Assembly (NCBI RefSeq): GCF_007827365.1
Contig: NZ_VISI01000002.1
Coordinates: forward strand, 625,001 to 689,000
From: Olleya sp. Hel_I_94
GTDB taxonomy: Bacteria; Bacteroidota; Bacteroidia; Flavobacteriales; Flavobacteriaceae
DNA length: 64,000 bases
Reading direction: 5' to 3'
The position numbers and the translations under genes were made by a program. This document shows positions 40,400 through 45,849 of this stretch, one piece after another; within the stretch, counting starts at the first letter, position 1, and every line of letters starts with the position of its first letter. A model generated the notes under the pieces. That model ran no database searches and was not told the DNA's origin. It worked only from the letters and a program-made list of their open reading frames with translations.

Positions 40400-42631
40400 T
40401 TATTCAGCATCGATAACTCTAAATTGAGTACGTCTGTTTGCTAAATGCTCTCTTTCTGTACAAGATACACCATCAGAACATCTGTTAGTTAATCTAGTTT
40501 CACCAAATCCATTTGATACAATTCTTGAAGAATTGATTCCTTTAGAGATTAAGTAGTTAGTTACAGCTTGAGCTCTTCTTTCTGATAAAGATCTGTTAGA
40601 CTCTTTCGAACCTCTTGAATCTGTATGAGAAGCAATCTCTACTGATACACCATTTTGTAAAACTGGTAATAATTTAGCATCGATTTCTCTTTTTGAAGCT
40701 GCTGTTAAAGTAGCAGAACCTAATTCCCAGTTTACATTAAGATCATTATAAGCTACTAACTTACAATCTACTTCTGCCCAAGATGTTAATCCACCTTTAG
40801 TTTGTAGTACTTCTTTAGTTACAGTTTTGTTAACCGCAGGAACAGTTACTTCTTCTACTCTAGCATCGCTAGCTAAAACCGTTTTCTTGTACGTAGCAGT
40901 TTTTTGAGGCACTTCAATAACTCTTGTTGTTGGAGGTGTTACCATTACTGTACGCTTCATTGTAGTAGATGTTGAAGGAATATCAACAACTCTTGTAGAT
41001 TCTGGAGTTATAACAGTTTTTCTGATTGTAGTCATTTTTGCTGGTACATCTGTCGCTCTTGTTGTTGGAGGTGTAGCCATTACTGTACGCTTCATAGTAG
41101 CAGTAACTTCTGGAATAGCTGTTACTCTTGTTGTAGCTGGTTCTAAAACCACAGTACGCTTCATTGTTTTAGTTACAGCAGGAATTTCAATAACTCTTGT
41201 TGTTGGAGGTGTTACCATTACTGTTCTCTTAACTTCATTAGTTACAGCAGGTATAGTAATAACTTTTGAAGTTGGAGGAGTTACCATTACAGTTCTCTTA
41301 ACTTCTTTAGTTACAGCAGGAATATCAATAACTCTTGTAGTTGCTGGAGATACTAAAACTGTTTTTTTGATTGTTTTAGTAATAGCAGGAATATCAATAA
41401 CTCTTGTTGTAGGAGGTGTTGTCATTACAGTCTTTTTAACTGTTTTAGTTACAGCAGGAATATCAATAACTCTTGTTGTTGCAGGCGTTTGAACTACACG
41501 TCTAGTGTAAGTACCCATACCACAATCTTCAGCATTGTTCTCACCTTGATCACATCCTGGCTTAGTAATAACTTGAGCATCATTAGCTAACTCTGTAGTG
41601 TTAACTGTAATGTTTTGAGCAGGTATGTTTTTATAACACCAGTATCTACAATCGTTAGGATCGTTTGATTGACAATCAACAGCTGGAGTATCACTCATTC
41701 CCCATTTAGCAGTTGCAGGCTTAACTTCGATAGTTTGGTAACCAGAAGTAAACTTAGCAGGTACTACAGTTAAAGTAGAACCAAATTGTTGTTTCTTATA
41801 AGATAATGTTTCAGTTCCCCATTTTGCAGGTATAACTTCTAAACGTTGGCTAGCATTTTGTACTACAACTTCAAAACTTTCAGATCCATATTGAGCAGGA
41901 ACTATCTCTACTCTAGAAGATGCAGGTTGTACAACAACTTCAACATTTTCAGTTGTCCATTTAGCTGGAACAACTTCTAAACGTTGACCTCCAGAATTTA
42001 CAACAACAGTTTCTGTTCTTGTTTCGTATTGTGCTGGTACAGTTTCTAACTTAGTGTAAGCAGCTTGTACAACTACAGTTTCTGTTCTTGTTTCATATTG
42101 AGCTGGTACAACTTCTAAACGTTGACTAGCTTCTTGAACAACAACTTCAAAACTTTCAGATCCTAGCTTAGCTGGAATAACTGATAAAGATTGTGCAGCA
42201 TCATTAGATACGATTTGAAAATTCTCTGTAGCATATTTTGCAGGTACTACTGATAATTCTTGATAACCTGGTTGAGTCATCATCTCTTCTGTAGTAGTAT
42301 CTGTAGATCCAGCAACTTTCTCTAATCTCTGAGAAGCTTCTTGCGTCACTACTTCAAAAGATTGAGTTTCGTATTGTGCAGGTACTACAGATAATTCTTG
42401 TCCTGCAGACTGTACAACAAACTCCTCATTCTCTGTTCTGTATTGAGCAGGAACAACTTTTAGCTTCTTGTACGCAGGAGCAACTTGCACTGTTACATCT
42501 TGGTTAACCCATACATCTGGAGTCACACAACGTTTGTAACATTTTCCTGGTTCAGGATTTGTTGGTAAATCTTGTGCGAATGCAATGGTGCAGACTACAA
42601 AAGATAAAAATGTTAGTAATACTTTTTTCAT
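40400..42631 (-). CDS. OmpA-domain protein with two 23-residue repeat arrays
   Basis: A 743-residue secreted outer-membrane protein. Signal peptide 1-19 (ends TIAFAQ). Residues about 50-305: eleven tandem 23-residue units with core RLEVVPAQYETRTETVVVQ, acidic overall. Residues about 305-370: a Cys-bearing linker (CQSNDPNDCRYWCYKN, CDQGENNAEDC). Residues about 373-605: ten 23-residue units with core TTRVIDIPAVTKTVKRTVM, basic overall. Residues about 625-743: OmpA peptidoglycan-binding domain (NWELGSATLTAASKR, HTDSRGSKESNRSLSERRA). The N-terminal parts should project from the wall or outer membrane. Function unknown. Confidence 0.85.
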   Translation of the reverse strand: MKKVLLTFLSFVVCTIAFAQDLPTNPEPGKCYKRCVTPDVWVNQDVTVQVAPAYKKLKVVPAQYRTENEEFVVQSAGQELSVVPAQYETQSFEVVTQEASQRLEKVAGSTDTTTEEMMTQPGYQELSVVPAKYATENFQIVSNDAAQSLSVIPAKLGSESFEVVVQEASQRLEVVPAQYETRTETVVVQAAYTKLETVPAQYETRTETVVVNSGGQRLEVVPAKWTTENVEVVVQPASSRVEIVPAQYGSESFEVVVQNASQRLEVIPAKWGTETLSYKKQQFGSTLTVVPAKFTSGYQTIEVKPATAKWGMSDTPAVDCQSNDPNDCRYWCYKNIPAQNITVNTTELANDAQVITKPGCDQGENNAEDCGMGTYTRRVVQTPATTRVIDIPAVTKTVKKTVMTTPPTTRVIDIPAITKTIKKTVLVSPATTRVIDIPAVTKEVKRTVMVTPPTSKVITIPAVTNEVKRTVMVTPPTTRVIEIPAVTKTMKRTVVLEPATTRVTAIPEVTATMKRTVMATPPTTRATDVPAKMTTIRKTVITPESTRVVDIPSTSTTMKRTVMVTPPTTRVIEVPQKTATYKKTVLASDARVEEVTVPAVNKTVTKEVLQTKGGLTSWAEVDCKLVAYNDLNVNWELGSATLTAASKREIDAKLLPVLQNGVSVEIASHTDSRGSKESNRSLSERRAQAVTNYLISKGINSSRIVSNGFGETRLTNRCSDGVSCTEREHLANRRTQFRVIDAE
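40815..41511 (-). repeat. Array 2: ten 69-bp repeats (basic 23-residue units)
   Basis: Each unit reads like TTRVIDIPAVTKTVKRTVM followed by a Pro-rich turn (VTPP). Units are well conserved at Arg3, Ile7/Pro8 and the KRTV part; the last two are diverged. Confidence 0.8.
41716..42490 (-). repeat. Array 1: eleven 69-bp repeats (acidic 23-residue units)
   Basis: Each unit reads like QRLEVVPAQYETRTETVVV plus a short Gln/Ala/Ser turn. The third unit (EKVAGSTDTTTEEMMTQ) has lost the VPA core. Alignment by eye with array 2 matches RL..VPA....T...TVVV to RV..IPA....T...TVMV. Confidence 0.8.
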
Positions 42632-42856
42632 TTTTAATAATTTAAATGGTTATTTGATAAATATATAGCCGAACTAATAACGACTGTTCACTTAACGACT
42701 GTTCACTAATTTCAAGCAAAAAAAATACATATCAAACTATTATTACTTTTAATTCTTAATATTTAGTTAAAATTCGCCAAAGAGTAAATAAAAGCGTTAA
42801 ACAACAATTGTTTTTTAACATATATTAAATCAAAAAAAATTACTAAAAAATAAATT
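42632..42856. promoter_or_regulatory. 225-bp gap with a 15-bp tandem repeat at 42678-42707
   Basis: TAACGACTGTTCACT occurs twice head to tail (42678-42692, 42693-42707), 47-76 bases upstream of the OmpA-repeat gene. No clear TAnnTTTG element was found. The remainder is AT-rich with no open frame of note. Confidence 0.5.
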
Positions 42857-45089: not shown

Positions 45090-45431
45090 ATGATTAAAAT
45101 TTATCATAATCCAAGATGTAGTAAATCTAGACAAGGGTTACAATTATTAGAAGATTCTAATAAAAAATTTGAAGTTATTAAGTACCTAGAAACCCCTTTA
45201 ACAGAAAAAGAATTAAAGGAAATCTTATCGCTTCTAAAAATAAAACCAATAGATTTAGTGAGAAAAAACGAAGCTATTTGGAAAGAAAACTACAAAAACA
45301 AAACCTTAACAGATGCCCAAGTAATAGAGGCTTTAATTAATAACCCTAAATTAATTGAAAGACCAATCGTTACTAATAACGACAAAGCTGTTATAGGTCG
45401 ACCAACAGAGTTAATCTCTAGCATTTTATAG
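45090..45431 (+). CDS. ArsC/Spx-family thioredoxin-fold protein (arsenate reductase-like)
   Basis: A 113-residue protein of the ArsC family. The reducing cysteine is C10 in HNPRCSKSR, and the C-terminal ERPIVTNNDKAVIGRPTE holds the Arg residues that bind arsenate. It begins 2 bases after the prfB stop, so it is surely cotranscribed with it. In Bacteroidota such proteins are often labelled arsenate reductase, but no ars operon is near, so a general thiol or Spx-like role is possible. Confidence 0.85.
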   Translation: MIKIYHNPRCSKSRQGLQLLEDSNKKFEVIKYLETPLTEKELKEILSLLKIKPIDLVRKNEAIWKENYKNKTLTDAQVIEALINNPKLIERPIVTNNDKAVIGRPTELISSIL

Positions 45432-45471: not shown

Positions 45472-45849
45472 ATGATAGTAATATATCACAATCCTGAGTC
45501 TTCAGACTCAAACGCTTGCTTAAAAATACTTGAAACACATAAACACGATCACGAGGTCATAAAATATCAAGATAAGCCATTAGATAAAATTAAACTTGTT
45601 AAAATAATTAACATACTTAACATTAAACCTGAAGAGCTTATTAGAAAAGAAAGTAAAATTTGGGTAGAAAACTTTAAACATTTAGAAGATGATGGTCACC
45701 TGTTTAATGATGACAGCTTGATAGATATAATGATTGAGTATCAAGACCTTATTGAAAGACCAATAGTCATAAATGGCGAAAAAGCTGTAATAGGCAAACC
45801 TGCAAAACGTATTTTTGATATCATTCCGCAGCAAAAAGCAACGCTATAA
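45472..45849 (+). CDS. ArsC-like paralogue without the catalytic cysteine
   Basis: A 125-residue protein clearly paralogous to its upstream neighbour: it shares IYHNP, IKPEELIRK..IW, and IERPIV.N..KAVIG.P. At the catalytic position it has Ser (HNPESSDSN, S10 aligned to C10), and the GRP motif is GKP, so reductase chemistry by the usual thiol is not expected. It may be a regulatory partner, a binding protein, or a decayed duplicate. The only nearby Cys is C16 (NACLK). Confidence 0.8.
   Translation: MIVIYHNPESSDSNACLKILETHKHDHEVIKYQDKPLDKIKLVKIINILNIKPEELIRKESKIWVENFKHLEDDGHLFNDDSLIDIMIEYQDLIERPIVINGEKAVIGKPAKRIFDIIPQQKATL

What the first reader, a model, noticed from the sequence alone, without database searches (positions are those of the whole stretch)
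40400..42631. OmpA protein with an acidic and a basic array built from one 23-residue unit
Both arrays have a strict 23-residue period, and their units align by eye (RLEVVPAQYETRTETVVV against RVIDIPAVTKTVKRTVMV). So they likely come from one ancestral unit that was amplified twice and then diverged to opposite charge. Two oppositely charged arrays on a wall-anchored protein could pair within or between molecules, giving a self-associating surface filament or adhesin. I do not know a described family with this layout.
Basis: partly seen in the sequence, partly recalled or inferred. Interest (0 to 1): 0.72.

Follow-up and report, generated by a model that had tools for sequence, protein, structure and literature searches.

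The report
Wall-anchored rod of paired repeats
This bacterial envelope protein carries two related repeat arrays that nearly always have the same number of units and appear to zip together, running in opposite directions, into one long rod held at the cell wall, a widespread layout for which we found no description.

Summary
In detail: a single-copy 743-aa OmpA-type protein of Olleya carries an acidic array (A1, 12 units) and a basic array (A2, 12 units) of one 23-residue unit. In relatives the two arrays change length in lockstep: 350 of 359 deduplicated proteins have n1 = n2 (344 by automatic count), from 4+4 to 28+28. The arrays are predicted to pair antiparallel, unit i of A1 with unit n+1-i of A2, as one long two-stranded beta hairpin with cysteine caps at base and tip. 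A residue register read from a 4+4 model came first of 1,568 diagonals by coevolution in 8+8 proteins and first of 286 in 48 proteins from other phyla. It also gave the strongest charge compensation in three sets, though not in the 4+4 or distant sets. The base carries OmpA or PG_binding_1. Opposite net charge is not the rule (7 of 158 4+4 proteins); position-by-position matching is. No Pfam or NCBIfam model above cut-off was seen on the arrays, and ten searches of an open-access library showed no description. What the rod does is inferred; a surface adhesin is unsupported.

The parts
40400..42631 (-). whole gene, 743 aa
   Evidence: one full-length match in the genome, the 11 others match only the C-terminal OmpA part
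42575..42631 (-). signal peptide, residues 1-19, no lipobox
   Evidence: read from sequence by eye; no signal-peptide predictor was run
42527..42547 (-). base cap, GKCYxxC (C31, C35)
   Evidence: G, K, C, Y and the second C invariant in the 106-row 4+4 alignment
41702..42526 (-). array A1, 12 units of 23 residues, net about -12
42251..42319 (-). irregular A1 unit 4 (KVAG instead of VVPA), mirror partner of A2 unit 9
   Evidence: by eye
41636..41704 (-). tip cap, W310...C320...C328xxxC332
   Evidence: W and three C invariant in the 4+4 alignment
41513..41569 (-). cysteine-bearing tip insert (C360, C370) near the start of A2
   Evidence: not in the 14 minimal 4+4 proteins printed
40778..41635 (-). 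array A2, 12 units, net +19 to +22
40985..41050 (-). short (22-residue) A2 unit 9
40763..40795 (-). second base cap, GGLTxW...C623
   Evidence: GG, T, W, C invariant in the 4+4 alignment
40466..40723 (-). OmpA peptidoglycan-binding domain, residues 637-722

Best explanation
A secreted periplasmic protein whose two homologous repeat cassettes zip together antiparallel within one chain, as a long two-stranded beta hairpin or ribbon. A1 runs from the base to a cysteine-rich tip and A2 runs back. Unit i of A1 faces unit n+1-i of A2, with cross-strand side-chain and charge complementarity. The base (CxxxC and W..C caps) carries the peptidoglycan-binding domain. Rod length is set by the number of unit pairs, and units are gained or lost in matched pairs because an unmatched unit would have no partner. 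Supported here by comparative evidence: lockstep unit number, mirrored irregularities, residue-level coevolution in the predicted register. Predicted only: the hairpin geometry, and that the partner lies in the same chain. Inferred: that it serves as a wall-anchored envelope spacer or strut presenting its tip at a length tuned by n; the tip's partner is unknown. The confidence given is for the paired antiparallel architecture; the spacer role alone I hold at about 0.4.
For: (1) n1 = n2 in 344 of 359 deduplicated proteins automatically and 350 of 359 after hand correction of 6 counting errors. Outside the Flavobacteriaceae-type set 68 of 73 (63 automatic), r = 0.98, n from 4 to 28, against a permutation mean of 10.8 and maximum of 22. 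Of 78 named-genome loci 76 parsed and 75 are equal. On a quick tree of the OmpA domain of 106 proteins, n changes at least 18 times among the 105 with equal arrays, and equality is lost once. (2) Irregularity at inner turn sites of A1 and A2 correlates at the mirror register: 0.242 in 37 non-Flavobacteriaceae proteins, against -0.12 to 0.11 for 27 other registers. (3) AF2 of a 4+4 N-region: pLDDT 86.7; strands alternate 12 and 7 residues, and seven of the eight A1 strands mirror an A2 strand of equal length with residue sum 228 (the pair next to the tip is 9 against 8); the top weak structure matches are mostly long beta-hairpin stems. (4) Register written down, then tested. Charge covariance is lowest at that register of 186 in Flavo 8+8 (121), Flavo n>=9 (24) and non-Flavo n>=5 (41). 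MI-APC: first of 1,568 diagonals in 8+8 and of 648 in 4+4, first of 286 in 48 distant proteins. The strongest pair exactly in register (second of all A1-A2 pairs), A1 u4 c22 / A2 u4 c20, is E-R in 46, R-E in 38, K-E in 19 of 121. (5) Window: 15 opposite against 1 like charge pair at that register, rank 1 of 186.
Against: pTM is low (0.34 for the 4+4 model, 0.31 for the whole protein) and parts of the window's own mid-arrays have pLDDT under 50, so the global shape is unknown. No coordinates could be inspected: the hairpin is read from strand limits and match types. A straight 12+12 ribbon would be about 90 nm (276 residues x 0.33 nm, recalled rise), far more than the recalled width of a periplasm, so it must bend, lie along the wall, or leave the cell. 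True exceptions to n1 = n2: P0026, P0028, P0029, P0076, L191, L200, L209, L211, L232 and L290; in the distant set 20 of 92 parsed are 3+4. In Flavobacteriaceae the turn-site test does not discriminate: mirror 0.784 and 0.685, but a parallel shift of -2 gives 1.065 and 0.815. A length-only irregularity test did not support the mirror register (7 coincidences, permutation mean 4.8, 1674 of 10000 as high). An inserted-unit test could not tell mirror from parallel (0.82 against 0.84). Charge covariance at d=0 was second in Flavo 4+4, third in 22 non-Flavo 4+4 and fifth among antiparallel shifts in the distant set, where d = -1 and -2 led. Raw charge-pair rank at d=0 in the 18 proteins with n=12 ranged from 1 to 85. 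The charge test was not fully blind: one charge swap had been noticed by eye before it.
Confidence: 0.8

Rival explanations
1. Arrays pair antiparallel but between molecules: A1 of one chain with A2 of another, giving a swapped dimer or a self-associating filament.
For: Coevolution and n1 = n2 would look the same for an antiparallel dimer.
Against: In the minimal protein only 12 residues separate the last A1 strand from the first A2 strand, and single-chain AF2 places mirrored strands right up to that gap on both sides. Four-cassette proteins read by eye have order a-b-b'-a', as a hairpin needs.
Confidence: 0.15
2. The hairpins associate side by side into a larger sheet or tube on the wall, as stems of large beta-barrel assemblies do; the single hairpin is only the subunit. 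(This can hold together with the best explanation.)
For: Top weak structure matches are hairpin subunits of oligomeric pores, plus phage collar chains and a flagellar-ring chain. Bare two-stranded ribbons this long are unusual (recalled). A weak second coevolution signal, A1-A2 parallel at d = -2 and -4 (4.6 and 3.8 in 8+8; 1.0 and 2.7 in 4+4), could be packing against another copy.
Confidence: 0.25
3. A1 and A2 are two independent rods; their equal lengths reflect a mutation mechanism that copies both arrays together, or selection for equal reach, without contact.
For: Equal numbers alone would fit; the inserted-unit test does not separate mirror from parallel.
Against: Does not predict residue-level covariation at one antiparallel register, first of 1,568, 648 and 286 diagonals, nor charge swaps.
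Confidence: 0.03
4. Surface adhesin or phase-variable filament with two charged arms.
For: Tandem repeats and charge; an OmpA family protein was listed in extracellular products of Tenacibaculum maritimum (PMC11513285, one passage seen), not shown to be this family.
Against: Signal peptide plus peptidoglycan-binding domain; unit number the same in 10 of 10 genus genomes; conserved neighbours look like housekeeping genes.
Confidence: 0.05

Closest known systems
OmpA / Pal family (PF00691), including OprF, Pal, CHU_0125 and PorE
   Same: C-terminal peptidoglycan-binding domain, above the Pfam cut-off and structurally matched
   Different: No N-terminal barrel, lipobox, TPR or PD40 found; the rest is two paired repeat arrays. 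CHU_0125, PorE and Pal models match only the OmpA part, far below their cut-offs
Unnamed PG_binding_1 (PF01471) proteins of proteobacteria, Acidobacteria and Nitrospinota, named 'peptidoglycan-binding protein' or 'hypothetical protein' where named
   Same: Same two cassettes, caps and unit; coevolution at the same register in 48 of them
   Different: Other wall-binding domain; of 92 parsed, 70 are 4+4, 20 are 3+4, 2 are 5+5; 57 of 120 have a lipobox-like N terminus by a loose pattern
SMC / Rad50 arms (recalled; topology only)
   Same: One chain, two arms of matched length pairing antiparallel; Rad50 has a cysteine motif at the tip
   Different: Coiled coil against predicted beta ribbon; no relation tested; no ATPase
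Braun lipoprotein Lpp (recalled; listing and abstract start of PMC8824477 seen)
   Same: Envelope rod attached to peptidoglycan whose length could set a spacing
   Different: Lpp is a lipidated coiled coil, covalently attached (partly recalled); none of this seen here
Long beta-hairpin stems of pore-forming assemblies (weak structure matches)
   Same: One long antiparallel two-stranded hairpin per chain (hairpin nature of the matches recalled)

Membership tests
OmpA family domain (PF00691) | match above the gathering score | tested here: met
   62.2 bits against 27.2, residues 637-722
OmpA porin (PRK10808) | full-length model with N-terminal membrane barrel | tested here: not met
   43.3 bits against 277, model 236-317 of 358 only
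CHU_0125 family (NF053607) | full-length model; TPR and PD40 domains before OmpA | tested here: not met
   82.3 bits against 620, model 532-638 of 639 only; domain layout from passages of PMC5891637
T9SS PorE (NF052230) | full-length model | tested here: not met
   61.2 bits against 600
Pal lipoprotein (TIGR02802) | model cut-off and lipobox | tested here: not met
   50.8 bits against 125.35; no lipobox cysteine after the signal peptide (by eye)
Two-cassette paired-array family described here | CxxxC cap, units, W..C cap, twice, then a wall-binding domain; n1 = n2 | tested here: met
   12+12; caps invariant in the 4+4 alignment
Long beta-hairpin fold of pore stems | strong structural match | tested here: inconclusive
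Lpp-like periplasm ruler | rod length sets membrane-wall spacing | not testable with these tools
   needs microscopy of mutants
Surface adhesin | surface exposure and binding | not testable with these tools
   no assay data; no surface signal seen by eye

The most novel reading that the evidence does not exclude
A widespread class of bacterial envelope rods made by a repeat principle not described before as far as we know: two homologous tandem arrays in one chain that grow and shrink in matched pairs and zip antiparallel with residue-level complementarity. It would be a beta-strand counterpart of the paired arms of SMC/Rad50, anchored to peptidoglycan, with freely tunable length (4 to 28 unit pairs), further wall-binding domains inserted part-way along some rods, and nested versions acting as jointed rods. 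It could act as an adjustable envelope spacer or as the subunit of a larger wall-bound tube.
Probability: 0.4. Interest if true: 0.9.

Novelty: new variant of a known kind. Interest (0 to 1): 0.78.

Why it matters
Thousands of protein records may share this layout under names such as 'OmpA family protein' or 'hypothetical protein': two capped searches counted 3,140 and 5,422 proteins at E <= 0.001, of which only the best 120 each were listed and looked at. If right, the arrays are one structural element that current annotation misses. The system would be a natural test bed for how tandem repeats evolve when every duplication needs a matching duplication elsewhere in the gene, for what sets envelope spacing in bacteria, and for the design of length-programmable beta rods.

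Tried and rejected
Length-only mirror test: flagging units whose length is not 23 gave 7 mirror coincidences against 4.8 expected (1674 of 10000 permutations as high). It mixed the two ends of a unit. The finer turn-site score was devised after this failure, with the register taken from the AF2 model, and should be read with that in mind. Inserted-unit placement (8+8 to 12+12) correlates equally for mirror (0.82) and parallel (0.84) orders: neutral. A first mask for inserted OmpA domains was too wide and removed half-units (339 of 359 equal); a tighter one was used (344 of 359).

Compact beta-solenoid with A1 and A2 coils interleaved: I expected a second coevolution diagonal near d = +/-23; none seen. 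Opposite net charge as a rule: rejected. Link to CHU_0125 or PorE: only the OmpA domain is shared. Partner gene: the commonest neighbours (threonine aldolase-, YbaB-, prolyl oligopeptidase- and cysteine synthase-like, named from recall) occur in 38-41 of 76 named loci and differ in others; neighbours were not examined outside this named set. Structure search of the whole protein: the 50 rows listed are OmpA-type domains. Viral structure library: one match at E <= 0.001 with rmsd 53, judged meaningless.

Rows dropped: 93 entries failed the landmark patterns; these are truncated loci but also genuine members without the expected tryptophan or cap (for example L092), so the counts cover only proteins with the standard caps. 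369 parsed sequences were deduplicated to 359. In one search, 28 of 120 distant proteins were not parsed; one search parsed 106 with a looser pattern that cuts some A1 arrays one unit short, so the unit counts are quoted. L292 and L295 of 78 named loci were not parsed. A3 used 106 of the sequences at hand (41 loci, 65 of the 120 proteins).

Full report
OBSERVATION. The gene at 40400-42631 (-) encodes 743 aa: signal peptide (by eye), GKCYKRC, array A1 (residues 36-310), a tryptophan/cysteine segment (W310, C320, C328, C332), array A2 (333-618), GGLTSW...C623 and an OmpA domain at 637-722. A1 and A2 each have 12 units of 23 residues, apart from one 22-residue unit and an insert near the start of A2. 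Net charges are -12 and +19 to +22. The units of A1 and A2 align well in one register only. The genome has one full-length match; the 11 other hits match only the OmpA end of the query, and the one I read in full (L002) has a different N-terminal part. The nearest named genome is Olleya marilimosa, 96% identity. All 10 genus genomes searched, the window's own included, have a full-length ortholog, each 12+12.

CASSETTE. The start of A2 resembles the start of A1 (CxxxC, then units), and each array ends in a W..C segment (by eye). In an alignment of 106 minimal 4+4 proteins the invariant residues of this region are G6 K7 C8 Y9 C12, W103 C112 C120 C124, P129, G213 G214 T216 W218 C223, that is, the caps plus one proline. 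So a whole capped cassette looks duplicated, rather than only a unit amplified twice. No Pfam model above cut-off lies on the arrays. The NCBIfam matches shown (best 25 per protein) fall on or next to the OmpA or PG_binding_1 part, except weak N-terminal ones in P0305, and all are below cut-off.

LOCKSTEP. In the first 121 proteins (the window's own included) plus 51 loci, unit numbers were 4+4, 8+8, 9+9, 10+10, 12+12 and 14+14 with four exceptions. A wider sample came from Bacteroidota genomes: 100 of 299 genomes of the family, 15 of 395 of a phylum sample, 11 of 246 of an order sample, 1 of 10 of a distant family and 81 of 120 of another family of the same class (group f5) had matches; loci were then read for a part of these. 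A profile Viterbi count on 359 deduplicated proteins gave 344 equal. Six of the 15 others are counting errors seen by eye (P0061, L188, L222, L236, L239, L245), leaving 9 true exceptions. Sizes reach 28+28. In the 73 proteins outside the Flavobacteriaceae-type set 68 are equal (63 automatic), against 10.8 on average and 22 at most in permutations. Of 78 named loci 76 parsed and 75 are equal: Olleya and most Lacinutrix 12+12 (Lacinutrix L288 and L307 are 8+8), Tenacibaculum mostly 11+11 with some 4+4 and 10+10, Lutibacter 5+5, 8+8 and 10+10, Kordia 8+8; the exception, L290, a MAG, is 9+11. On a quick tree of the OmpA domain of 106 proteins, n changes at least 18 times among the 105 with equal arrays; the tree rests on about 110 residues, so the number is rough.

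MIRROR. In the window A1 unit 4 is irregular (KVAG for VVPA) and A2 unit 9 is one residue short; 4 + 9 = 12 + 1. The same holds for 8+8 (4 and 5), 9+9 (4 and 6), 10+10 (4 and 7), and for L052 (14+14), where A1 units 4, 7, 10 face A2 units 11, 8, 5 (by eye). Eleven proteins have OmpA domains inserted in A2, three of them also in A1. By eye, the A1 turn that mirrors the A2 insert carries a length insert in L230, L235, L245 and L228; in L098, L099, L217, L236 and L239 only the residues there are unusual; in L238 and L232 I saw nothing clear, and L232 is 24+16. In L228 and L238 the two OmpA domains sit two units away from exact mirror positions. A score over all inner turn sites peaks at the mirror register (0.242; 27 others between -0.12 and 0.11) in 37 non-Flavobacteriaceae proteins. 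In the two Flavobacteriaceae sets, where one inherited irregularity dominates, the mirror register gives 0.784 and 0.685 but a parallel shift gives 1.065 and 0.815, so those sets do not discriminate. A cruder length test was negative.

COEVOLUTION. With column means removed, charge covariance between A1 and A2 was lowest at this register out of 186 (93 antiparallel, 93 parallel) in three sets: Flavo 8+8 (121), Flavo n>=9 (24), non-Flavo n>=5 (41). It was second in 136 Flavo 4+4 and third in 22 non-Flavo 4+4 proteins, and fifth among antiparallel shifts in the distant set. Mutual information with APC put d=0 first of 1,568 diagonals in 8+8 (10.9; robust sd 1.18) and first of 648 in 4+4 (7.0), with every unit positive on average. 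The 4+4 rows overlap with the AF2 alignment; the 8+8, n>=9, non-Flavo n>=5 and distant sets were not in it. The strongest pair exactly in register swaps charge: E-R 46, R-E 38, K-E 19 of 121. Relatedness inflates such statistics, but does not by itself favour one chosen diagonal in several sets.

DISTRIBUTION. A query typed from recall found the same layout with PG_binding_1 in place of OmpA; the few rows with organism names are from Deltaproteobacteria, Desulfobacterales, Gammaproteobacteria, Nitrospinota and Acidobacteria. Of 92 parsed of 120, 70 are 4+4, 20 are 3+4 and 2 are 5+5. MI in 48 of them again puts d=0 first of 286. P0246 and P0261 look like nested double hairpins, cassette order a-b-b'-a' (by eye).

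HOW IT MOST LIKELY WORKS. Supported by comparative evidence: the arrays are matched antiparallel partners. Predicted: they form one long beta hairpin with a base at the wall-binding domain and a cysteine-rich tip. Inferred: selection for pairing forces duplications and deletions to be matched, and the protein is a wall-anchored rod whose length is tuned by n. A spacer or strut role is my first guess (about 0.4), a side-by-side assembly next (about 0.25), a swapped dimer less (about 0.15). How 12 or 28 unit pairs fit the periplasm is unexplained.

LITERATURE. Searches covered an open-access library; no title or abstract start listed described the arrays, and four unit motifs occur in no paper held. 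Seen: passages of PMC5891637, one passage each of PMC10288586 and PMC11513285; the rest as listings and abstract starts. Most subscription papers are not held, so absence in print is not proven.

Noticed in passing
42678-42707: Perfect 15-base tandem direct repeat (TAACGACTGTTCACT x2) about 50 bases upstream of the start codon, possibly regulatory; a 14-base core with up to 2 mismatches has only these two matches in the window.
   Followed up: partly
L228, L238, L232 (both arrays); L098, L099, L217, L230, L235, L236, L239, L245 (A2 only): OmpA-type domains inserted inside the repeat arrays of large relatives, so the rod would have wall-binding domains part-way along.
   Followed up: partly
P0246, P0261 (and perhaps P0244): Proteins with four cassettes in nested order, as if two hairpin rods were jointed end to end (by eye).
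   Followed up: partly
P0242, P0305: Lipobox-like N terminus and a coiled-coil-like stretch before the arrays in proteobacterial-type members (57 of 120 by a loose lipobox pattern), suggesting an outer-membrane lipid anchor in that branch.
   Followed up: partly
8+8 and 4+4 sets: Weak second coevolution signal, A1-A2 parallel at d = -2/-4, possibly packing of the ribbon on another copy or on itself; not stronger than some unrelated diagonals.
   Followed up: partly
G000:C2:1981390-1981707 and G000:C2:2421060-2421377: Two OmpA-domain ORFs with identical scores and open-frame length (666) against the query, perhaps a recent duplication elsewhere in the genome.
   Followed up: no
45090-45431 and 45472-45849: Two adjacent small ORFs that look like ArsC/Spx-type reductases (named from recall) in tandem.
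   Followed up: no
L295 (Lacinutrix neustonica): Ortholog not parsed; the match of 2227 bases is not a multiple of three, so the gene may carry a frameshift there.
   Followed up: no
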